From: Tsukamurella sp. 8F
GTDB lineage: Bacteria; Actinomycetota; Actinomycetes; Mycobacteriales; Mycobacteriaceae
Direction: 5' to 3'
NCBI RefSeq assembly: GCF_029167375.1
Contig: NZ_JARFTP010000025.1
Span: 1-61,056 of the forward strand
DNA length: 61,056 bases
A model generated the notes under the pieces. The model worked only from the letters and a program-made list of their open reading frames with translations, did no database searches and was not told the DNA's origin. Each line of letters opens with the position of its first letter. The first letter of the stretch is position 1. This document shows, one piece after another, positions 12,892 to 23,503 of this stretch. The position numbers and the translations under genes were made by a program.

Positions 12892-13709
12892 CCAAGCGCC
12901 TCCCGGTCCCGCCGATGACGGACCACTCGCAGTTGCTGGCTGCGCTCGGCGTGGGCCTCCCTGATGAGTTGCTGACGCTGGCCCTGACCCACCGCTCGTA
13001 TGCCTACGAGGCCGGCGGGCTGCCGACCAACGAGCGGCTCGAGTTCCTGGGCGACAGCGTCCTCGGCCTGTCGGTGACCGAGTGGCTGTACCGCACGCAC
13101 CCGGACAAGCCCGAGGGCGACCTCGCGAAGATCCGCGCCAGCGTGGTCAACATGCACGCACTCGCGTCGGTGGCGCGCGGTCTCGGCGAGGGCGGGCTCG
13201 GCGCGCACCTGCTGCTCGGTAAGGGCGAGGAGCTCACCGGCGGCCGCGACAAGGACAGCATCCTCGCCGACGGCATGGAGTCTCTGCTCGGCGCCGTGCA
13301 CCTCGAGCACGGCATCGACGCCGCCCGCGCCGTCGTCCTGCGGCTGTTCGAGGAACTGTTGTCGACGTCGTCCGCGATGGGCGCCGGCCTGGACTGGAAG
13401 ACCTCCCTGCAGGAGATCACCGCCGAGAAGGATCTCGGCGTTCCCGGCTACCGCATCACTTCCACCGGTCCCGACCACGACAAGGAGTTCACGGCGGTCG
13501 CCGTCGTGGATGGTCGCGATCTGGGCAGCGGCGTCGGCCGCACCAAGAAGGAGGCCGAGCAGAAGGCCGCCGCCGCCGCATGGCAGGAGATCGACGAGAA
13601 CATTCCGGGCACACAGCCAGGTGCGGCTGTGGCTCCGGAGGCTCGGCCCGCGGTTGCGGCCGGCCAGGCCGCCGGCGAGGAGCCTGTGGCGCCCGCGGCC
13701 GAGGCCTGA
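12888..13709 (+). CDS. rnc: Ribonuclease III
   Basis: A 273-aa double-strand-specific endoribonuclease that processes rRNA and structured mRNA. The RNase III signature [13 protein letters not shown] is at about residues 45-57, and the second catalytic acidic block is DGMESLLGA. The dsRNA-binding domain runs from WKTSLQEIT to [13 protein letters not shown]. An Ala/Pro-rich tail of about 40 residues is longer than in E. coli. The GTG at 12888 overlaps the DUF177 stop; ATG 12915 is an alternative start. The stop overlaps mutM. Confidence 0.95.
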
Positions 13710-14569
13710 TGCCCGAGCTCCCCGAGGTCGAGGTCGTCCGCCGCGGCCTCGCGGACCATCTCGTCGGTCGCACCGTCGTCGGCGTCGACGTTCTGCACCC
13801 GCGTGCCGCGCGACGGCATGTGGCGGGAGACCTCGACCTGATCGGCCGGATCTGCGGCGCGACGATCGCGTCCGCGGAGCGGCGCGGCAAGTTCCTGTGG
13901 CTGCCTTTGAGTTCCGGCGGCGCCGCCCCGGACAGCGCGATCGTCGTCCACCTGGGCATGAGTGGCCAGATGCTGTTCGGTGAAGGCGATGACCGGCACC
14001 TGCGTATCCGTGCCGCCCTGGGCGACGGCACTGTGCTGCGGTTCCTGGACCAGCGGACGTTCGGTGGGTGGCATGTCGACCCGCTCGTCATGGTCGACGG
14101 GACCGACGTGCCGACTTCCGTCGCGCACATCGCGCGCGATCCGCTGGACCCGCTGTTCGACCATGCCGCCGCCGTTGCCGCGATGAAGCGCAAGGACACC
14201 GAGGTCAAACGTGTGTTGCTGGACCAGACCGTCGTATCCGGAATCGGCAACATCTACGCCGACGAGGCGTTGTGGCGCAGCCGCGTTCACGGCCGGCGCC
14301 GGGCGGCAGCCATGACGAGGCCCGCGCTGGCGCGGCTGCTCGACGATGCCACCCAGGTCATGCGCGAGGCGCTCGGCCAGGGCGGCACCAGCTTCGACGC
14401 GTTGTACGTGAACGTCAACGGTCAGTCGGGCTACTTCGAGCGGTCGCTGAATGCGTACGGGCGCGACGGCGAGCCCTGCCGCCGCTGCGGCACGATCATG
14501 CGCCGCGAGCAGTTCATGAACCGCGGGTCGCACTTCTGCCCCAGGTGTCAGAGGGCGCCGCGGCGCTGA
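13709..14569 (+). CDS. mutM: Formamidopyrimidine-DNA glycosylase MutM (Fpg)
   Basis: A 286-aa bifunctional base-excision repair glycosylase/lyase that removes 8-oxoguanine and formamidopyrimidines. The N terminus PELPEVE gives the catalytic Pro and Glu (after Met removal). [12 protein letters not shown] is the helix-two-turn-helix region, and the C-terminal zinc finger has CRRC and CPRC pairs. The ATG overlaps the rnc stop. It is the last core gene before an accessory island. Confidence 0.96.
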
Positions 14570-14584: not shown

Positions 14585-15436
14585 TCAGGCGATCGACTGC
14601 TCCACGAACGACAGCTGGCTCAACGCGTACTCGCGGGCGCGGCGGTGCAGCTCGATCGAATGCCCCACGCCCGCCATCCGGGTGGCGGCGAACGGACCTG
14701 TGAAGTGGCACGCGGCCGCCGCCATCGCCTCGTCGTCCGAGCGCCAGATCTTGTCCTGCTCCGCGAAGGTCAGACGCACGGGTGCGGTGACCGCGGCGCC
14801 GACGGTGGGCAGCCGGTCCGCCCAGTCGATGACGTCGTCGAGCTCGGGCATCGGCATGGGACGCATCAGCTCGCCGTCGCGCGCAGCGGCCGCGCCGTCG
14901 ACCGTGTCGTCCGCGCCGAGCATGACGCCCGCGTGGGCCTCGGGCGGGAGCTCGATCGCGGGCGCGTCGCTGCGCAGGCCACCCCACATCTCCCGGACGC
15001 CGGGTTGCCAGAGCTCGCCCAGGCCGCTGATCTCGACGCCGCGGGGCGTGGCCGATGACGCCGCGACCAGCAGCGCGAGCATCCCGCCGATCGAGTGGCC
15101 CACCAGCACCAGCGGTAGACCGGAACTCGCGGCCAGCGATTCCATCGCAGCGGTGAGGATCTTCGTCTGCGCGTCGAACCCCAGCCGGTCCGCGGGCACG
15201 GCGGTGCTGCCGCCGTAGCCGGGCCGATCGACGGCCACGACCGTGTAGCCGAGACCGGGACCGAGTGCCAGCAGGGAATCGTCGCCGGCCTGGTAGTACT
15301 CGGAATCGTAGGTGCCGCCGTGGAGGACGAGGATCAGGGCGCGCGACGCCCCGGCGGGCCGGGCGATCCGAGCGGCGAGCGGGACGCCGTCGGCGTCGAG
15401 AGTGGTCGATTCCACCGGGGCGGAAGTGGTCGTCAT
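14585..15436 (-). CDS. Alpha/beta hydrolase, divergent from aryl-CoA ligase
   Basis: A 283-aa serine hydrolase. The oxyanion region is LVLHGGTYDS, the nucleophile elbow is GHSIGG near residue 120, and a likely acid and base are in AEQDKIW and GVGHSIEL. AAGGAG sits eight bases before the ATG at 15436; the longer frame to 15496 is not needed. It is transcribed divergently from the ligase-monooxygenase genes across a 146-base region with operator-like palindromes. It probably belongs to the same catabolic unit, perhaps as thioesterase or C-C hydrolase; this is inferred from context only. Confidence 0.82.
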   Translation of the reverse strand: MTTTSAPVESTTLDADGVPLAARIARPAGASRALILVLHGGTYDSEYYQAGDDSLLALGPGLGYTVVAVDRPGYGGSTAVPADRLGFDAQTKILTAAMESLAASSGLPLVLVGHSIGGMLALLVAASSATPRGVEISGLGELWQPGVREMWGGLRSDAPAIELPPEAHAGVMLGADDTVDGAAAARDGELMRPMPMPELDDVIDWADRLPTVGAAVTAPVRLTFAEQDKIWRSDDEAMAAAACHFTGPFAATRMAGVGHSIELHRRAREYALSQLSFVEQSIA

Positions 15437-15464
15437 GGTGGGGTCTCCTTGTGCGGGTGCAGCG

Positions 15465-15473
15465 ATGTTACAT
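15465..15473. promoter_or_regulatory. ATGTTACAT palindrome before divergent hydrolase
   Basis: ATGT-T-ACAT is a perfect short palindrome 29 bases upstream of the minus-strand hydrolase start. It carries the same ACAT/ATGT half-sites as the operators at 15524 and 19595. It may be a third TetR contact site. Confidence 0.35.
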
Positions 15474-15523
15474 AAATGGCGAGAATCCGACAGCAATGTA
15501 AATACAACGCGAAGACCCCTTGC

Positions 15524-15545
15524 TTGTCAACAGTTATGTTGATAA
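15524..15545 (+). promoter_or_regulatory. Operator-like inverted repeat before ligase gene
   Basis: TTGTCAACA and TGTTGATAA flank a four-base centre (GTTA) and match in eight of nine paired positions. The right arm contains a -10-like GATAAT (15541-15546). The right half plus flank (ATGTTGAYAATT) recurs at 19603, before the second transcription unit of the island. The TetR gene at 18811 is the likely regulator. Confidence 0.6.
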
Positions 15546-15582
15546 TTTGACTTTTATGTCAGAGACGATCGCGGAGATGCAG

Positions 15583-17250
15583 ATGGCCGTCCCCTTCCAT
15601 GAGCCCGGTCTCGTCCCGTACCCGGACGGGTTCGTGCGCCGGTACCGAGACGAGGGCCTGTGGCGCGGCGTCTCCCTACCGGACGAACTCCGCGCCGCCG
15701 CAGGTGTTTTCGCCGAACGGACCGCCCTCGTCACGCCCGAGGTCCGCTGGACGTACGCCGAGCTGTTCGACCGTGCGGACCGGTTCGCGCGCGGGCTTCT
15801 GGTCGCCACGGACCTGAAGCCGGGCGAGCCGATCATGTTCCAGATGGGAAACGTCGCGGAGACAGTTGTGGCCTACCTCGGTGTCCTCGCCGCCGGCCTT
15901 CGCCCCGTGTGCACACTGCCCCAGCACGGGGCGCGCGAGATCGGCCTGCTGGCCGAGCACGTCGGGGCCCGGGCCACCGTCGTCCAGGGCGACAACGGCA
16001 AGGGGGAGACGGTGGCCGTTGCCTCGGCCCTGCATGCCGACGGCGCCCTCCCTGTCGTCATCGTCGCCCGCGGGGCCGCCATCGGCGGGACCCCGACCCT
16101 CGACGCCCTGCTCGAGGCGGGCCGCATGGCACCGTCGGCCCCCGCGGTCGATCCCGAGCAGATCGCCCTGTTCCAGCTGTCGGGAGGCACCACGGGCCTA
16201 CCCAAGGTGGCGCCCCGGCTGCACGAGGAGTACGTGCACAACTCCCGCGCCTGGGCGCGAGCGCTGGGCTGGGGCACCGAGACTCGGGTGCTCTACCCGC
16301 TGCCGCTGATGCACAACGCCGGGATCGCGCTGGCGCTCCAGCCGGCGCTGCTCAGCGGCGCGAGCGTGGTGCTGTCGCCGACCGCGCAGATCCCGCAGCT
16401 GCTGGACCTGATCGAGGCCGAGCGGCCGACCGTCCTGCCCCTCATGCCGCCCGCCCTGGTGGTTCGCATGCTGGAGGAGCCGCGCAGCGCGACGGCGGAC
16501 CTGTCCAGCATCGTCGACCTCATCGTCGGCGGGCAGGCGCTGCCGGAGAACGTCTCGATCCGGCTGCGCGACGAGCTCGGCATCGCGGTGCGGCAGATGT
16601 TCGGCATGGCCGAGGGCATGTTCCTCGTGACACCCGATGGGGCCGGAGAGGAGGTGCGCCACCACAGCGTGGGCTCGCCGGTCTCGCCCGCCGACGAGGT
16701 GCGGATCGTCGAGATCGCGGGCGACGACGAGGTGGCGCCCGGCGAGATCGGCGAGTTCTGCGCCCGGGGGCCCTACACGATCCGCGGGTACTACCGCGCC
16801 GAGCAGCACAACCGGGACGCATTCAGCGCCGACGGGTTCTACCGCACCGGCGACCTGGCACGCGCCCACGTGATCGACGGCGTCACGGTGTACTCGATCG
16901 AGGGTCGGATCAAGGACGTGATCAACCGTGGCGTCGAGAAGATCCACGCCGAGGAGGTCGAGGAGGTGCTGCTGCGCCACCGGGACATCGTCGATGCCGC
17001 GCTCGTGGCGATGCCCGATCCGGTGCTGGGCGAGAGGGCCTGCGCATACCTGATCGTCGAGCCGGGCGCCTCGACGCCGACGGTCGCGTCGATCGGCGGG
17101 TTCCTCACCGAGCAGGGACTCGCGAAGTACAAGCTGCCCGAGCGTATCGAGGTCGTGGACCGGTTCCCCCTCTCCAACGTGGGCAAGGTCTCCAAGAAGG
17201 ACCTGCGCGAGCGGGTCGCCGAAGCACTGCGCGCCGAGTCGGCGCACTGA
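15583..17250 (+). CDS. Aryl-AMP / aryl-CoA ligase (EntE/SdgA-like)
   Basis: A 555-aa member of the ANL adenylating superfamily. The P-loop is QLSGGTTGLPK, the A5-type motif is MFGMAEGMF, the A7 region is YRTGDLAR, and A10 is PLSNVGKVSKKDL with the catalytic Lys. The N-terminal VPYPDGFVRRYRDEG and the LPQHGAREIGLLAEH block resemble 2,3-dihydroxybenzoate- and salicylate-activating enzymes. It likely activates a hydroxylated aromatic acid. ATG 15583 has GCGGAG six bases upstream; ATGs at 15556 and 15577 are alternatives, the first possibly leaderless from GATAAT. It is followed 27 bases later by the flavin hydroxylase. Confidence 0.85.
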   Translation: MAVPFHEPGLVPYPDGFVRRYRDEGLWRGVSLPDELRAAAGVFAERTALVTPEVRWTYAELFDRADRFARGLLVATDLKPGEPIMFQMGNVAETVVAYLGVLAAGLRPVCTLPQHGAREIGLLAEHVGARATVVQGDNGKGETVAVASALHADGALPVVIVARGAAIGGTPTLDALLEAGRMAPSAPAVDPEQIALFQLSGGTTGLPKVAPRLHEEYVHNSRAWARALGWGTETRVLYPLPLMHNAGIALALQPALLSGASVVLSPTAQIPQLLDLIEAERPTVLPLMPPALVVRMLEEPRSATADLSSIVDLIVGGQALPENVSIRLRDELGIAVRQMFGMAEGMFLVTPDGAGEEVRHHSVGSPVSPADEVRIVEIAGDDEVAPGEIGEFCARGPYTIRGYYRAEQHNRDAFSADGFYRTGDLARAHVIDGVTVYSIEGRIKDVINRGVEKIHAEEVEEVLLRHRDIVDAALVAMPDPVLGERACAYLIVEPGASTPTVASIGGFLTEQGLAKYKLPERIEVVDRFPLSNVGKVSKKDLRERVAEALRAESAH

Positions 17251-17277
17251 CTTCTCGTCAGAGGAAGGACGAAGAAC

Positions 17278-18774
<1,497 letters not shown>

Positions 18775-18810
18775 ATGGTCGCCACGACCGCCCGACGTAC
18801 ACTGCGACGC

Positions 18811-19503
18811 ATGTCGACAGGCGTGGGTAAGAGCAGCGGGCAGCGTCGGCGCGAACTGGTTATCGGCGACGTCCTGGACTCCGCGACGGACCTGTTCGCG
18901 GTGAAGGGCTACGACGCGACCAGCCTGCAGGACATCGCCGACGCCGTGGGCGTGTCCCGGCCCGCGCTGTACCACTACATCAGCAGCAAGGAGGACCTGC
19001 TGGTGATGCTGGTGGAGCGGGTCTCGCAGGCGCTCGCCGACGTCATCGCCGAGCTCAGCGCCCGCGCCGACCTCCAGCCCAGCGAGAAACTCACCATCCT
19101 CACCGAGCAACTCGTGCGGCAGCGCGCCGAGCACCCCAGCCAGTTCCGCATCCTCGACCGCTCCGAGATGATGCTGCCGAAGGAGGCCGGGGAGGACCAC
19201 GCCGCCGCCCGCCGCCGCGTGCTACGCGAAGTGGTGTCGATCATCGAGGAGGGGATCAAGGCGGGGCAGTTCAGCCCCGTGGACCCGCGCACCGCGGCGC
19301 TCAGCCTGCTCGGCATGTGCAACTGGGTCGCGTGGTGGGCGAAGCCGGCCGACGGCGTCGAGGTGCAGGCGATCGTCGACACGATCAGCGGGCTGGCGCA
19401 GCGGATGCTCCGTGTTCCCGAGACCGACGGCGCCGTAGCCGGTCCGGCCGGCCTGCTCGCTGAGATCCGCACCCGCCTGGACCGTCTCGAACCTCTGCTC
19501 TGA
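18811..19503 (+). CDS. TetR-family regulator of the catabolic island
   Basis: A 230-aa repressor. The N-terminal helix-turn-helix is SLQDIADAVGVSRPALYHYISSKEDLL at about residues 35-60 (described here by its two halves, SLQDIADAVGVSR and PALYHYISSKEDLL). The ligand-binding C domain has TRP-rich MCNWVAWWAKP near residue 170. A TACACT -10-like element lies shortly before the ATG, so it may also have its own promoter. It follows the hydroxylase by 36 bases and is closed by a strong hairpin. The shared operator elements at 15524 and 19595 are its probable targets, with an aryl-CoA as a plausible ligand (inference). Confidence 0.88.
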   Translation: MSTGVGKSSGQRRRELVIGDVLDSATDLFAVKGYDATSLQDIADAVGVSRPALYHYISSKEDLLVMLVERVSQALADVIAELSARADLQPSEKLTILTEQLVRQRAEHPSQFRILDRSEMMLPKEAGEDHAAARRRVLREVVSIIEEGIKAGQFSPVDPRTAALSLLGMCNWVAWWAKPADGVEVQAIVDTISGLAQRMLRVPETDGAVAGPAGLLAEIRTRLDRLEPLL

Positions 19504-19525
19504 CCCGAGATCGCCTGCGCGCCAG

Positions 19526-19562
19526 GATCGCCCGTTCCGCCACTCCGGCGGGGCGGGCGATC
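19526..19562 (+). terminator. Strong hairpin terminator after TetR
   Basis: A 16-bp stem (two G-U pairs, otherwise perfect) with a five-base loop starts GATCGCCCG and ends CGGGCGATC. It lies 23 bases after the TetR stop. No T-tract follows, as is common in actinobacteria. It separates the two transcription units of the catabolic island. Confidence 0.75.
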
Positions 19563-19594
19563 GTCGTCTGCGGGTTACGCGACCGGCAGATCCC

Positions 19595-19612
19595 TGACAT
19601 TAATGTTGACAA
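19595..19612 (+). promoter_or_regulatory. Operator-like element before maleate isomerase
   Basis: TGACATTAATGTTGACAA contains the perfect palindrome ACATTAATGT and shares the stretch ATGTTGAYAATT with the operator at 15536. It overlaps the -35 hexamer TTGACA, the classic position for a repressor site. Confidence 0.6.
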
Positions 19613-19634
19613 TTGAACGTCTGTGTCGAATACT
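19606..19634 (+). promoter_or_regulatory. Promoter of the maleate isomerase operon
   Basis: A perfect -35 TTGACA (19606-19611) and a -10 AATACT (19629-19634) are spaced 17 bases apart. The transcript would have a roughly 27-base leader with a GGAGGAGA ribosome binding site. Confidence 0.65.
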
Positions 19635-19667
19635 GAGAAGGAAGGCGGAACCCATCGGAGGAGACCC

Positions 19668-20429
19668 ATGAGCGCCAACCCCATTCGGATCGGACTGGTC
19701 GTGCCCAGCTCGAACGTCACCGTCGAGACCGAGATGCCCCGCATCCTGGCGCGGCATCCGGAGCGGGAGTTCACCTTCCACGCGAGCCGGATGCGCATGC
19801 AGAAGGTCTCACCCGAGCAGCTGCGCGCCATGAACGCCCAGCGCGAACGGTGCGTGATCGAGCTCGGCGACGCGGGCGTCGACGCAATGCTGTACGCCTG
19901 CCTGGTCGCGATCATGTCCACCGGACCGGGGGAGCATCACCACGTCGAGGCGAAGATCGCCGAGCAGCTGTCGGAGGGCGGCAGCGACGCCCGCGTCCTG
20001 TCCAGCGCCGGCGCGTTGGTGGACGCCCTCGCCGATATGGGGGCGACGCGGATCGCCGTGGTCACCCCGTATCAGCGGCCGCTCGCCGAGCAGGTGATGG
20101 CCTACCTCGAGCACGAGGGGCTCACCGTGACCGAGTGGCGTGCACTGGAAGTCGCCGACAACGCCGAGGTGGGGCGCATCCCCGGCGAGCGGGTGATGGA
20201 GGCCGCGCGCAGCATGGACCTCGCCGACGTGGACGCTCTCGTGCTGTCGGCATGCGTGCAGATGCCCTCGTTGGATCTGGTGCAGGCCGCCGAGGACGAG
20301 TTCGGCGTCCCCGTGATCACCGCCGCGACCGCCGGTGCGTACCGCATCCTGCGCGCCGTGGGCGTCACGGTCGACATCCCCGGTGCCGGGTCCTTGTTGC
20401 GCGCCGACGCCGTCATCGAAACGCACTGA
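19668..20429 (+). CDS. Maleate cis-trans isomerase
   Basis: A 253-aa Asp/Glu racemase-fold enzyme that converts maleate to fumarate using a cysteine-based succinyl intermediate. The N terminus RIGLVVPSSNVTVETEMP is the maleate isomerase signature. The two catalytic cysteines are in LYACLVAIMS (about residue 80) and LSACVQMPS (about residue 197), the spacing known for the family. GGAGGAGA lies before ATG 19668. Such enzymes end the nicotinate and gentisate-hydrolytic routes, which tells that this island yields maleate. Confidence 0.88.
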   Translation: MSANPIRIGLVVPSSNVTVETEMPRILARHPEREFTFHASRMRMQKVSPEQLRAMNAQRERCVIELGDAGVDAMLYACLVAIMSTGPGEHHHVEAKIAEQLSEGGSDARVLSSAGALVDALADMGATRIAVVTPYQRPLAEQVMAYLEHEGLTVTEWRALEVADNAEVGRIPGERVMEAARSMDLADVDALVLSACVQMPSLDLVQAAEDEFGVPVITAATAGAYRILRAVGVTVDIPGAGSLLRADAVIETH

Positions 20430-20458
20430 CAGACACCGATTTCGAGAAGGATCGAGCC

Positions 20459-21091
20459 ATGACCGAGCAGAACCCCGAACACCGCGTCGCGGGCGTGGAC
20501 CACGCCGCGTTCCCGACGTTCGACCCCGTGAGCACTGTGAAGTTCTACAACGGTGTCCTCAAGTTCCCCATCGTCCACTCGATCTGCGCTGCCGGGTGGG
20601 GTCCGGAGAATCACCCCGACTTCATCCACTTCTTCTTCGACATCGGCAACGGCGACCGGATGGCGTTCTTCTACTACTTCGGGCTCGAGCCCTTCGGCGA
20701 CCAGACCGCCCCCGGCGACTCCTGGGCCCGCCTGCCGCACGACACGCCCGTGTTCTTCAAGAATTCGCGGCACCTGGCCATCCACGTCGAGAGCGAGGAG
20801 GACCTACTCGAGTACCGACGCCGCCTCGACGAGTCGGAGTGGCCGTGCGAGATGCAGGTGATGCACGAGACGATCGAGTCGATCTACACGCACGACCCCA
20901 ACGGCTACATGCTGGAGATCACCCGGGCCCTGCGCCCAGTGACCCCCCAGGAGGACCTCGACGCCGAACTCACCATCGAGGCGCTGTGCGACGTGGTGTC
21001 TGGCGGCTCGCCGTCGATGGACGCGCTGCTGCTGCGCAAGGCCGAACTGATCGTCGAGCGCGCGGAGGCGTGGGAGGGGGCCGTCCGATGA
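20459..21091 (+). CDS. VOC-family (glyoxalase/extradiol dioxygenase fold) protein
   Basis: A 210-aa protein with the vicinal-oxygen-chelate fold. Likely metal ligands are His in VDHAAFPTFD (near residue 14), His in RHLAIHVES (near 105) and Glu in GYMLEITRAL (near 150), a two-His-one-Glu set suitable for a ferrous dioxygenase. The C-terminal 50 residues are helical and extra to the simple VOC fold. It starts 30 bases after the isomerase with AAGGAT upstream. In context it is the best candidate for ring cleavage, since no cupin gentisate dioxygenase or NicX is present; this is an inference. Confidence 0.78.
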   Translation: MTEQNPEHRVAGVDHAAFPTFDPVSTVKFYNGVLKFPIVHSICAAGWGPENHPDFIHFFFDIGNGDRMAFFYYFGLEPFGDQTAPGDSWARLPHDTPVFFKNSRHLAIHVESEEDLLEYRRRLDESEWPCEMQVMHETIESIYTHDPNGYMLEITRALRPVTPQEDLDAELTIEALCDVVSGGSPSMDALLLRKAELIVERAEAWEGAVR

Positions 21092-21333
21092 GCCGCATGT
21101 ACGTACTGGACGTACCCGAGAACGACGGCGTCGTGAAGGTCGCGGGCGCCGACCCCGACGTCGTGATCGAGAAGGTGGGGCCTTACTTTCGGATCACCCG
21201 ACCCGAGGAGATCGTGATAGACCGCCGCGCCACCGGCTGCCGGCACGCCGTCTGGTACAGCTCCCTCGCGGGCCTGGAGGAGTCGAAGGTCGCTCAGCAC
21301 GACAAGGACGCGCTGCGGGTGGTCGACCGGTGA
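21088..21333 (+). CDS. Unrecognised 81-aa protein in catabolic operon
   Basis: A small acidic protein beginning MSRMYVLDVPENDGVV. I do not recognise the family. It has no signal peptide or membrane segment, and contains one Cys (ATGCRHAVWYS) in a Trp/Tyr/His-rich patch. It is coupled at both ends: its ATG overlaps the VOC stop by four bases and its stop overlaps the GTG of the following hydrolase. Such tight coupling and codon use like its neighbours argue that it is a real gene, perhaps a small subunit or accessory of the VOC protein or hydrolase. Confidence 0.75.
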   Translation: MSRMYVLDVPENDGVVKVAGADPDVVIEKVGPYFRITRPEEIVIDRRATGCRHAVWYSSLAGLEESKVAQHDKDALRVVDR

Positions 21334-22577
21334 CCGCCACGGAACGGCTCGGAGCCGGCCGGCACCTCGACGCCGACGCCGTGCCCGAGGGCACGGTCGC
21401 GACGCCCGTCGAGCTCTCCACCGTCGACGGTGCCAAGGTCGCCGGGATCCTGCGCACGGTCCCCGGTGCCACCGCCGTCGCGTTCCTCATGCACCCGCGG
21501 CAGGACTTCTCCCACCACGTGCTGGTGCCGGAGTTCCTCCGCCGCGGCGTCGCCGTCTGGACGCAGGGCTCGCGCACGCAGGGCAACGACCTGACGCTCC
21601 TGCACGAGCAGACTCTGCTCGATATGGCCGCGGGGCATGTGTTCCTGCGCGAGAACGGCTTCGAGACGGTGATCGCCGTGGGCCATTCCGGCGGCGGCGC
21701 GCTGGCCGCGTTCTACATCGAGCAGGCCGGCCTGCCCGCCGAGGAGCGGTTCGCCGGCACCCCCGGCGGCAAGCCCGTGCCGCTGCGCAGGGCTGCCATG
21801 CCGCTGCCCGACCACGCTGTCTTCATGGCGCCGCACCCCGGCCAGGGGGAATTGCTGATGCGCATGATCGATCCGTCGGTGGCGGACGAGTCCGATCCAC
21901 TCTCGGTACTGCCCGAGCTCGATCCGTTCCACGCGGACAACGGATTCCGCCCGGCGCCCGAGCCGTCGTCGTACGCGCCCGAGTTCGTCGAGCGGTACCG
22001 GGCGGCGCAGCGCGCACGGGTGGAGCGGATCGACGCCGTGGCCCGCGAACGCGTCGCGCGCTCCCGGGCGGCACAGAAGCGGTTCAAGGACGGCGGCGAC
22101 CCGGCCGACCGGCGCGCGGCGCTCGCGACCGAGTTCGTCACGGTGCAGCGCACCGATGCCGACCTGCGCTGCATGGACCCGTCGATCGACGCCAACGACC
22201 GCCCGTACGGCTCGCTGTTCGGGTCTCGCCCCGACCTCACCGACTACGGCGTGGTCGGCTTCGGTCGCCTGACGACGCCGGAGGCGTGGCTGTCCACGTG
22301 GTCCGGCCTGAGCAGCCGGGCGAGATTCCTGCGCTGCGCTCCGGCGGTGACGATGCCGGTTCTGCTCATCGAGATCACCGGCGATCAGGCCTGTTTCCCC
22401 GCCGACGCCCTGGCCATGGTCGCGGCGTTCGGCAGCGACGACGTCGAGCATGTGCGCGTGCGCGGCAAGCACTTCGGTGCCGCCCTCACCGACGGCGAGC
22501 CGACCGCCGCCACGTTGGCCGGCCTCGAGATCGAGCGGTGGCTGGCCGCACGGGTCGCGACGGCCGCTACCCGATAG
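21330..22577 (+). CDS. Large alpha/beta hydrolase of the catabolic operon
   Basis: A 415-aa serine hydrolase. LMHPRQDFSHH is the oxyanion-region strand and loop, the nucleophile elbow is GHSGGG (about residue 113), and the late EITGDQACFP and RGKHFGA supply a candidate acid and histidine. It has a long charged helical insertion around residues 210-270 (cap domain). The GTG start overlaps the preceding stop. It could hydrolyse the ring-cleavage product or a CoA thioester to release maleate; the substrate is not known. It converges on arr with a six-base gap. Confidence 0.8.
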   Translation: MTATERLGAGRHLDADAVPEGTVATPVELSTVDGAKVAGILRTVPGATAVAFLMHPRQDFSHHVLVPEFLRRGVAVWTQGSRTQGNDLTLLHEQTLLDMAAGHVFLRENGFETVIAVGHSGGGALAAFYIEQAGLPAEERFAGTPGGKPVPLRRAAMPLPDHAVFMAPHPGQGELLMRMIDPSVADESDPLSVLPELDPFHADNGFRPAPEPSSYAPEFVERYRAAQRARVERIDAVARERVARSRAAQKRFKDGGDPADRRAALATEFVTVQRTDADLRCMDPSIDANDRPYGSLFGSRPDLTDYGVVGFGRLTTPEAWLSTWSGLSSRARFLRCAPAVTMPVLLIEITGDQACFPADALAMVAAFGSDDVEHVRVRGKHFGAALTDGEPTAATLAGLEIERWLAARVATAATR

Positions 22578-22583
22578 TCGAGC

Positions 22584-23006
22584 TCAGTTGAGGATCTCGC
22601 CAACGCCGCCGCTGCGGATCGCGGCGAGCCGCTCCCGCCACATCTGCAGCGCCTCGGGGGTGAGGCGCGTCCAGTCGTGGATCTCCTCGACGACACGCAG
22701 CGGCTCACTGCTGCGGTAGGAGCGGGTGGGGTTGCCGGGGAACTTCTTGTCGGTGACGTTGGGGTCGTTCTCGTACTCGCCGGTGGGCTCGACCCGGTAC
22801 ACGTGCGGGGTGCCCTGGTCACCGTCGAGCGCGACGGCCAGCTCCGCGGCGAGACCGGCGCCGTCGCGCAGCGCGGTGAAATAGATGTGGTTCATGACGA
22901 CCTCGGGCCGGTAGTTGGAACGGAATCCGGGGGTGAGAAGATCTCCGGCCGCGAGACCGGCCTTCGTGCCGTGGAAGAACGGGCCTGCGTCCAGTGCGTC
23001 GCTCAC
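22584..23006 (-). CDS. arr: Rifamycin NAD+ ADP-ribosyltransferase Arr
   Basis: A 140-aa enzyme that ADP-ribosylates the C23 hydroxyl of rifamycins and thereby inactivates them in the cytoplasm. The whole family pattern is present: FFHGTKAGLAAGDLLTPG (catalytic His), NHIYFTALRDG (Tyr) and DDPN-type ENDPNVTDKKFPGNPTRSY (Asp). The length matches mycobacterial Arr (about 143 aa). The GTG start lies seven bases after a TATACT -10, so the mRNA is probably leaderless. Chromosomal arr is common in environmental Mycobacteriales and predicts intrinsic rifampicin tolerance. Confidence 0.95.
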   Translation of the reverse strand: MSDALDAGPFFHGTKAGLAAGDLLTPGFRSNYRPEVVMNHIYFTALRDGAGLAAELAVALDGDQGTPHVYRVEPTGEYENDPNVTDKKFPGNPTRSYRSSEPLRVVEEIHDWTRLTPEALQMWRERLAAIRSGGVGEILN

Positions 23007-23071: not shown

Positions 23072-23503
23072 ATGGCAGACGATGGTGCGAAGCCGCACAC
23101 GGAACTCTGGGTCGAGCGCACGGGAGTACGCCGGTACACCGGCCACAGTTCCCGCGGGGCCGAGGTGCTCGTGGGATCGGAGGATGTCGACGGCGTGTTC
23201 ACGCCCGGCGAGCTGCTGAAGATCGCGCTTGCCGCGTGCACCGGTATGAGTTCGGACCGGCCGCTCGCTCGGCGCCTCGGCGACGACTACGAGGCCACGG
23301 TCCGGGTCTCGGGTGCCGCGGACCGAGAGAACGAGCGGTACCCCGAGCTGAACGAGGTCCTCGAGATCGATCTGTCCGAGTTGGACGAGGCAGCGCAGGA
23401 GCGGCTGCTCGTCGTGGTGGAACGCGCTATCGACGCCGTGTGCACCGTCGGGCGCACGCTGAAGGCCGGGACGACCGTGAATCTCGATATCAAGACCGAC
23501 TGA
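23072..23503 (+). CDS. OsmC-family peroxiredoxin
   Basis: A 143-aa OsmC/Ohr-fold thiol peroxidase (ortholog of Rv2923c). The two redox cysteines are in ALAACTGMSS (about residue 56) and DAVCTVGRTLK (about residue 124). It would reduce organic hydroperoxides in the cytoplasm. ATG 23072 directly follows a leaderless -10; the longer frame from 22994 has no support. It is followed two bases later by acyP, the conserved mycobacterial arrangement. Confidence 0.9.
   Translation: MADDGAKPHTELWVERTGVRRYTGHSSRGAEVLVGSEDVDGVFTPGELLKIALAACTGMSSDRPLARRLGDDYEATVRVSGAADRENERYPELNEVLEIDLSELDEAAQERLLVVVERAIDAVCTVGRTLKAGTTVNLDIKTD

What the first reader, a model, noticed from the sequence alone, without database searches (positions are those of the whole stretch)
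14585..22577. Catabolic island predicted to turn an aromatic acid into maleate by a CoA-linked route
It holds an aryl-AMP/CoA ligase, a salicylyl-CoA 5-hydroxylase-like flavoprotein, a VOC protein with a 2-His-1-Glu set, two hydrolases and a maleate isomerase, inserted between mutM and osmC, which are neighbours in M. tuberculosis. No cupin gentisate dioxygenase, maleylpyruvate isomerase or NicX is present. The set suggests a new path: acid to aryl-CoA, para-hydroxylation, VOC ring cleavage, hydrolysis to maleate, then fumarate. Salicylate or a hydroxypyridine carboxylate are candidate substrates.
Basis: partly seen in the sequence, partly recalled or inferred. Interest (0 to 1): 0.75.

Follow-up and report, generated by a model that had tools for sequence, protein, structure and literature searches.

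The report
Aromatic ring-opening gene cluster with effector
A conserved set of bacterial genes looks like an unrecorded way to break down a salicylate-like aromatic acid to fumarate, and its ring-opening enzyme seems to be paired with a small helper protein of a kind known so far from an unrelated class of oxygenases.

Summary
Window 14585-22577 (a Tsukamurella) encodes an EntE/salicylate-AMP-ligase-like ligase, a flavoprotein like salicylyl-CoA 5-hydroxylase, a TetR regulator, a maleate isomerase, a VOC protein and two alpha/beta hydrolases. In the best 80 of 176 loci found with the VOC protein, the 81-aa gene and second hydrolase occur in 80, ligase 79, isomerase 76, hydroxylase 73. Seven proteobacterial replicons carry the set too.

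The new point is the 81-aa gene. Its model (pLDDT 97) has MmoB/DmpM/T4moD effectors of diiron monooxygenases as its 31 best fold matches; Pfam MmoB_DmpM weakly matches 20 of 34 relatives (not the window's own); it is fused to the VOC gene in five replicons; 21 of 29 cluster-bearing genomes show no such monooxygenase. The VOC protein's nearest solved relative is a homogentisate 1,2-dioxygenase.

Best reading: aryl acid (probably salicylate) to aryl-CoA, 5-hydroxylation, gentisate-type cleavage by a VOC-plus-effector dioxygenase, hydrolysis to maleate and pyruvate, then fumarate. Every reaction is inferred. A hydroxypyridine substrate is less likely.

The parts
14585..15436 (-). abH1: alpha/beta hydrolase (283 aa), peripheral; possibly an esterase feeding the pathway (inference)
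   Evidence: PF12697 69 bits; a relative by my bit-score limit lies in 6 of 80 loci
15527..15542 (.). putative TetR operator TCAACA-N4-TGTTGA upstream of the ligase
   Evidence: 9 exact sites in 80 loci plus window, 8 upstream of the ligase gene and 1 between ALDH and SDR genes; 0 for each of 59 permuted half-sites. All 9 come from Tsukamurella or Dietzia. Within the window alone, with 2 mismatches allowed, 39 of 100 shuffles also gave a match
15556..17250 (+). aryl-acid AMP/CoA ligase (564 aa), EntE/DhbE/CahJ superfamily
   Evidence: TIGR02275 419.7 bits, under its cut-off 723.55; best solved relative salicylate-AMP ligase 5wm2, E 6.7e-115; His-Asn motif kept. Searches used the form starting at 15577
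17278..18774 (+). FAD aryl-CoA hydroxylase (498 aa); C-terminal ~130 aa looks like a remnant of a fused OYE domain (inference)
   Evidence: PRK08255 positions 3-365 of 768, 295 bits, under its cut-off 1078; VioD 3c4a E 8.9e-33; alignment
18811..19503 (+). TetR-family regulator
   Evidence: PF00440, PF17932; a TetR relative in 79 of 80 loci
19594..19609 (.). possible second, degenerate operator upstream of the isomerase (9 of 12 positions)
   Evidence: weak, another 9-of-12 match lies at 19614-19629
19668..20429 (+). maleate cis-trans isomerase
   Evidence: 2xec E 5.5e-106, both Cys aligned; 76 of 80 loci
20459..21091 (+). VOC ring-cleaving dioxygenase, catalytic subunit (210 aa)
   Evidence: PF00903; nearest solved relative 9u42; H15, H105, E153 in 97 of 97
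21088..21333 (+). MmoB/DmpM-like effector subunit (81 aa), overlaps the VOC gene by 4 nt
   Evidence: model pLDDT 97.1; Foldseek top 31 all MmoB/DmpM/T4moD; PF02406 in relatives, not in this copy; hhalign; fusions in relatives
21330..22577 (+). abH2: large-cap alpha/beta hydrolase (415 aa), proposed C-C hydrolase; nucleophile S120, likely D352 and H381
   Evidence: weak Pfam only; GHSGG, D352, H381 invariant in 21 aligned sequences; no solved relative by profile at E 0.01

Best explanation
The cluster is a TetR-controlled catabolic unit. The ligase makes the CoA thioester of a 2-substituted benzoate, most likely salicylate. The flavoprotein hydroxylates it para to the 2-substituent, giving gentisyl-CoA. 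A two-subunit dioxygenase, a VOC protein plus an MmoB/DmpM-like effector, opens the ring between C1 and C2 at the thioester or, in proteobacteria, probably after a hotdog thioesterase has released gentisate. AbH2 splits the maleylpyruvate-type product into maleate and pyruvate, and the isomerase turns maleate into fumarate. Shown: gene content, conservation, the invariant His-His-Glu set, the effector fold in a predicted model, VOC-effector fusions in relatives. Inferred: every reaction, the substrate, the regulation, the point at which CoA leaves, and that effector and VOC bind each other.
For: Families: ligase, hydroxylase, maleate isomerase, VOC nearest to a homogentisate 1,2-dioxygenase, an enzyme for a para-hydroquinone acid. 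Conservation in 80 actinobacterial loci and 7 proteobacterial replicons. The VOC protein is the only ring-cleavage candidate in the conserved set, and 19 of 29 VOC-bearing genomes have no cupin gentisate dioxygenase match at E 1e-20. Effector: fold; PF02406 is the only Pfam family matched by more than one member at E up to 1 (20 of 34 and 7 of 21 members, best E 0.0018; the sets overlap); whole-genome PF02406 hits on this gene in 7 of 29 VOC-bearing genomes; hhalign E about 5e-5 for a single comparison; five natural fusions and four-base overlaps in 73 of 93 pairs; one-branch origin in a VOC tree of 27 chosen rows; no diiron hydroxylase in 21 of 29 genomes. Peripheral genes fit salicylate: ALDH plus SDR (salicyl alcohol or aldehyde) or an esterase-like hydrolase, with an operator-like site also at an ALDH/SDR pair. 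The known upper route salicylate - salicylyl-CoA - gentisyl-CoA is described in PMC4600096 (one passage read).
Against: No activity, growth or expression data. The ligase and hydroxylase score well below the curated cut-offs of their models. The window's own 81-aa protein has no Pfam match even at E 1, and PF02406 matches in relatives are weak. Only 1 of the fold matches reached E 0.001. VOC Foldseek TM-scores are low (0.29 for 9u42), and two of its five AlphaFold models were poor (pLDDT 49.5, 46.4). A thioesterase like the proteobacterial one is in 0 of 80 actinobacterial loci, so CoA release is unexplained. Of 80 loci, 7 show no hydroxylase and 4 no isomerase, some on short contigs. HyuA genes in 43 of 80 loci have an unknown role and fit a lactam or ketone substrate better than salicylate. 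The genome itself has a separate gentisate-dioxygenase-like cupin.
Confidence: 0.58

Rival explanations
1. The same enzymes act on a nitrogen-bearing acid: anthranilate (via 5-hydroxyanthraniloyl-CoA) or 3-hydroxypicolinate. Cleavage then gives an amide, and in type B clusters HyuAB hydrolyses a lactam or amide.
For: The hydroxylase family includes 2-aminobenzoyl-CoA monooxygenases (recalled). HyuA/HyuB, nearest to caprolactamase and acetophenone carboxylase models but far under their cut-offs, occur in 43/44 of 80 loci. In loci with HyuA the ligase and hydroxylase are 38-46% identical to the window's (one exception, L087, ligase 65%) while VOC stays at 72-78% and abH2 at 60-66%.
Against: The window and other clusters without HyuAB have no amidase or deaminase that I could see, yet keep the maleate isomerase. 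The ligase is nearest to salicylate and 2,3-dihydroxybenzoate ligases.
Confidence: 0.25
2. This is only the known CoA route from salicylate to gentisate; a cupin dioxygenase elsewhere cleaves the ring, and the VOC protein does something else, such as isomerisation of maleylpyruvate.
For: The window's genome has a gentisate-dioxygenase-like cupin on contig C1, as have 10 of 29 VOC-bearing genomes in all. A Streptomyces plasmid has cupin, FAH and maleylpyruvate isomerase genes near the cluster, with transposase genes between.
Against: 19 of 29 VOC-bearing genomes have no such match. The VOC protein's nearest solved relative is titled a ring-cleavage dioxygenase. The 81-aa gene and abH2 go with the VOC bait in 80 of 80 loci.
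Confidence: 0.12
3. The 81-aa protein is not an effector of the VOC enzyme: it shares the fold by convergence, or serves the flavoprotein hydroxylase, or is a structural or metal-delivery subunit.
For: Sequence similarity to true effectors is weak. In an M. avium plasmid it lies between the VOC gene and a flavoprotein gene. A profile of it finds nothing in seven loci with distant VOC relatives.
Against: Fold, Pfam and profile comparison agree on one family. The five fusions seen are all to the VOC protein.
Confidence: 0.2

Closest known systems
CoA-linked salicylate pathway of Rhodococcus sp. B4 and Streptomyces sp. WA46 (PMC4600096, one passage read)
   Same: Salicylyl-AMP/CoA ligase and salicylyl-CoA 5-hydroxylase, giving gentisyl-CoA
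   Different: There gentisate is cleaved by gentisate 1,2-dioxygenase; here a VOC plus effector-like protein, an uncharacterised hydrolase and a maleate isomerase, and no such dioxygenase in the cluster
Gentisate route through maleylpyruvate hydrolase (HbzF, named in PMC5658364, passages read)
   Same: Maleylpyruvate hydrolysed directly to maleate (proposed here)
   Different: The proposed hydrolase is an alpha/beta hydrolase by its weak Pfam hits and GHSGG motif (HbzF's own family not tested); maleate is isomerised to fumarate
VOC-type homogentisate 1,2-dioxygenase, PDB 9u42
   Same: VOC family, His, His and Glu aligned (its metal ligands not seen), para-hydroquinone acid substrate by the entry's title
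   Different: 24% identity, TM-score 0.29, other substrate, no effector known to me
MmoB/DmpM/T4moD effector proteins of bacterial multicomponent diiron monooxygenases (PF02406)
   Same: Fold (Foldseek prob 1.00), size, weak sequence signal
   Different: No diiron hydroxylase partner in 21 of 29 genomes; linked, and in some replicons fused, to a VOC protein

Membership tests
Maleate isomerase (Asp/Glu racemase superfamily) | Overall similarity and two catalytic cysteines | tested here: met
   2xec E 5.5e-106, both Cys aligned
Salicylyl-CoA 5-hydroxylase (PRK08255) | Score over curated cut-off, fused OYE domain | tested here: not met
   295 of 1078 bits, N-terminal half only; works like it, not filed as a member
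Aryl-AMP ligase EntE/DhbE (TIGR02275) | Score over curated cut-off | tested here: not met
   419.7 of 723.55 bits; same superfamily, own subfamily
VOC ring-cleaving dioxygenase | VOC domain with 2-His-1-Glu | tested here: met
   PF00903; H15, H105, E153 in 97 of 97
VOC ring-cleaving dioxygenase | Fe(II)-dependent O2 consumption and ring opening | not testable with these tools
   needs purified protein
MmoB/DmpM effector (PF02406) | Fold | tested here: met
   Foldseek ranks 1-31, prob 1.00, TMq 0.68-0.78, E 9e-4 to 7e-2, on a predicted model
MmoB/DmpM effector (PF02406) | Pfam gathering score | tested here: not met
   window protein no match; relatives best E 0.0018; whole-genome hits 18.8-21.3 bits, under cut-off 25
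MmoB/DmpM effector (PF02406) | Partner diiron hydroxylase | tested here: not met
   PF02332 in 8 of 29 cluster-bearing genomes, none in the window's genome
Cupin gentisate 1,2-dioxygenase pathway | Cupin dioxygenase in the cluster | tested here: not met
   absent from the window cluster; a match under the curated cut-off elsewhere in 10 of 29 cluster-bearing genomes

The most novel reading that the evidence does not exclude
A new class of ring-cleaving dioxygenase: a VOC catalytic subunit gated by an MmoB/DmpM-type effector subunit (fused in some proteobacteria), working on a gentisate-type ring, possibly as its CoA thioester, in a hybrid pathway, patchy but spread over two phyla, that ends in maleate and fumarate. 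Effector control of O2 activation would then have been recruited by an unrelated, non-diiron oxygenase.
Probability: 0.55. Interest if true: 0.87.

Novelty: new variant of a known kind. Interest (0 to 1): 0.72.

Why it matters
Effector proteins are known to me only from diiron monooxygenases, where they time O2 activation. A VOC dioxygenase with one, fused in nature, would let that control be studied in a small mononuclear enzyme. The cluster also gives testable functions to proteins that public plasmid records call 'VOC family protein', 'hypothetical protein' and 'alpha/beta hydrolase', and adds a salicylate-type route with neither gentisate 1,2-dioxygenase nor maleylpyruvate isomerase in the window's cluster.

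Tried and rejected
Considered and set aside: NicX/2,5-dihydroxypyridine route (no fitting ligase or hydroxylase family; NicX itself not searched); cupin gentisate dioxygenase as the necessary partner (19 of 29 genomes have no match; it is not depleted either: 25 of the other 122 family genomes match against 10 of 29; none of these matches passes the model's cut-off); the 81-aa protein as partner of a diiron monooxygenase. Maleylpyruvate isomerase was not searched genome-wide. Led nowhere: phmmer/profile searches of abH2 and of the 81-aa family in PDB; viral contigs; a phylum-wide scan that found the VOC family only in the window's own genome (1 of 396 at E 1e-20; 7 candidates per listed genome were scored, so a lower bound, and it speaks for a patchy distribution). 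Literature: ten searches listed no paper that by title or abstract start treats this gene set or a VOC enzyme with an MmoB-like effector; several lists were capped (5 of 9,567, 20 of 43, 12 of 663, 12 of 16), and only open-access papers are held. Of papers I read only passages of PMC4600096, PMC5658364 and PMC13215587. I recalled the dicamba gentisate dioxygenase DsmD as a possible relative and could not check it. Bit-score limits are my own, and presence means anywhere in the fetched locus (69 of 80 loci have 20 kb or more).
Full report
WHAT IS THERE. The window belongs to a Tsukamurella: its nearest VOC relatives in named genomes are Tsukamurella, and the contig of a genome labelled 'same genus' (100,079 bases) has the length of the Tsukamurella sp. 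M9C record. Gene calls: mutM 13709-14569; abH1 15436-14585 (-); ligase 15556-17250; flavoprotein 17278-18774; TetR 18811-19503; maleate isomerase 19668-20429; VOC 20459-21091; an 81-aa gene 21088-21333; abH2 21330-22577; then arr 22584-23006 (-) and osmC 23072-23503. VOC, 81-aa gene and abH2 overlap in turn by four bases.

SITE. mutM and osmC are 0.58 and 0.74 kb apart in two Tsukamurella genomes, with no arr or cluster gene between them; two other genomes without a VOC match and one that has it elsewhere have, of the genes tested, arr alone in the gap. In a T. tyrosinosolvens record the cluster lies next to ftsY instead. So it is a variable insert, with ordinary G+C.

FAMILIES. The ligase is nearest to salicylate-AMP ligase 5wm2 (E 6.7e-115) and 2,3-dihydroxybenzoate ligases and keeps their His-Asn pair, but misses the TIGR02275 cut-off. 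The flavoprotein matches the first half of the salicylyl-CoA 5-hydroxylase model at 295 of 1078 bits and VioD; the seven proteobacterial versions are 378-386 aa long without the C-terminal tail. The isomerase matches maleate isomerase 2xec at E 5.5e-106 with both cysteines.

CONSERVATION. In 151 family genomes, 30 VOC places in 29 genomes, the window's included, lie at 70% identity or more and 13 further places at 38-45%. In the 29 short loci of the close group, 81-aa gene and abH2 are in 29, isomerase in 27. A scan of named genomes gave 176 relatives, of which the best 80 were kept; by my bit-score limits the 81-aa gene and abH2 are in 80 of 80, ligase 79, TetR 79, isomerase 76, hydroxylase 73, HyuA 43, HyuB 44, SDR 8, ALDH 6, abH1 6. 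The VOC gene was the bait. Seven proteobacterial replicons, fetched out of nine records that the VOC search found at 39-46% identity, all have ligase, hydroxylase, isomerase, effector part and abH2; 6 of 7 have a hotdog thioesterase, against 0 of 80 actinobacterial loci; 4 of 7 a TetR match. Three plasmid relatives at 32-35% identity that I opened (L153-L155) show no 81-aa gene. In the phylum at large the family is rare (1 of 396).

PERIPHERAL MODULES. The core is often joined to one of three further sets: HyuAB (type B, mostly with a ligase and hydroxylase only 38-46% identical to the window's), ALDH plus SDR, or abH1. HyuAB is nearest to caprolactamase and acetophenone carboxylase models, far under their cut-offs. 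An inverted repeat TCAACA-N4-TGTTGA occurs exactly 9 times in 80 loci plus window, 8 times before the ligase gene and once between ALDH and SDR genes, and never for 59 permuted half-sites. I derived the motif from the window, which is counted; all nine sites come from Tsukamurella and Dietzia, so they are not independent. A one-mismatch site lies at the ALDH/SDR pair of another Tsukamurella.

THE 81-AA PROTEIN. AlphaFold2 gives pLDDT 97.1. Foldseek against the PDB ranks 31 chains of MmoB, DmpM-type and T4moD effectors first (prob 1.00, TMq 0.68-0.78, E 9e-4 to 7e-2, only one at E 0.001 or better), then, in the 50 rows shown, chains at E 0.17 and above with prob 0.41 or less, one of them a phenol hydroxylase P2 NMR model. 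The structural aligner for a second look was never available. Scanning members one by one at E up to 1, PF02406 MmoB_DmpM is the only Pfam family that more than one member matches: 20 of 34 and 7 of 21 (the sets overlap), best E 0.0018; the window's own protein is not among them. A whole-genome search with PF02406 in 151 genomes at E 0.01 put all seven of its sub-cut-off places on this gene, in 7 of the 29 VOC-bearing genomes. Profile comparison with 24 of the 27 above-cut-off places gave E about 5e-5, probability 67-68%. In 93 pairs it overlaps the VOC gene by four bases in 73 and is fused to it in five (Variovorax, C. metallidurans CH34, two Caballeronia, Paraburkholderia hospita). In a VOC tree of 27 rows that I chose, the 21 effector-bearing rows are one side of a single branch (96/91), with the program's warning about long branches. 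A diiron hydroxylase (PF02332) is found in 8 of 29 cluster-bearing genomes and not in the window's genome.

THE VOC PROTEIN. Nearest solved relative: 9u42, titled homogentisate 1,2-dioxygenase from Acinetobacter (phmmer 3.5e-7, profile 7.4e-11, Foldseek 6.7e-8 but TM only 0.29). H15, H105 and E153 align with His, His and Glu of 9u42 (its metal ligands I have not seen) and are invariant in 97 of 97 sequences; H57 and H136 are too. The model has mean pLDDT 88.5, but two of five models were poor.

MECHANISM. Salicylate (or a close analogue) to CoA ester; 5-hydroxylation; ring opening between C1 and C2; hydrolysis of the beta-diketone by abH2 (GHSGG, D352, H381 invariant in 21 sequences) to maleate and pyruvate; maleate to fumarate. 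The upper part matches the published CoA route (PMC4600096), which goes on by gentisate 1,2-dioxygenase; maleylpyruvate hydrolase and maleate isomerase are known separately (PMC5658364). The cluster as a whole was not found in ten literature searches (listed, with their limits, in Tried and rejected). 19 of 29 cluster-bearing genomes have no cupin gentisate dioxygenase match at E 1e-20; the window's own genome has one, under the model's cut-off. Open points: where CoA leaves in actinobacteria, what HyuAB does, and whether the ring carries OH or NH2.

VERDICT. All reactions remain inferred.

Noticed in passing
A relative lies in the mutM-osmC gap of three of five other Tsukamurella genomes looked at.
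   Followed up: partly
L141 (NZ_LR134461.1, 'plasmid 19'): The Tsukamurella tyrosinosolvens record called a plasmid carries ftsY, ffh, a [protein-PII] uridylyltransferase and an ammonium transporter gene and looks chromosomal.
   Followed up: no
L050, L055, L056, L057: Distant VOC relatives in unnamed family genomes lie beside an abH2-like hydrolase without a detectable effector gene: perhaps a simpler VOC-hydrolase pair for another hydroquinone.
   Followed up: partly
L155 (Neorhizobium petrolearium plasmid): Distant VOC, alpha/beta hydrolase and flavoprotein genes beside two p-hydroxycinnamoyl-CoA hydratase/lyase genes, suggesting a lignin-type substrate.
   Followed up: no
L036:4482-8918 and relatives: HyuAB pair in type B clusters; HyuB has a C-terminal cysteine-rich stretch. 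Substrate unknown.
   Followed up: partly
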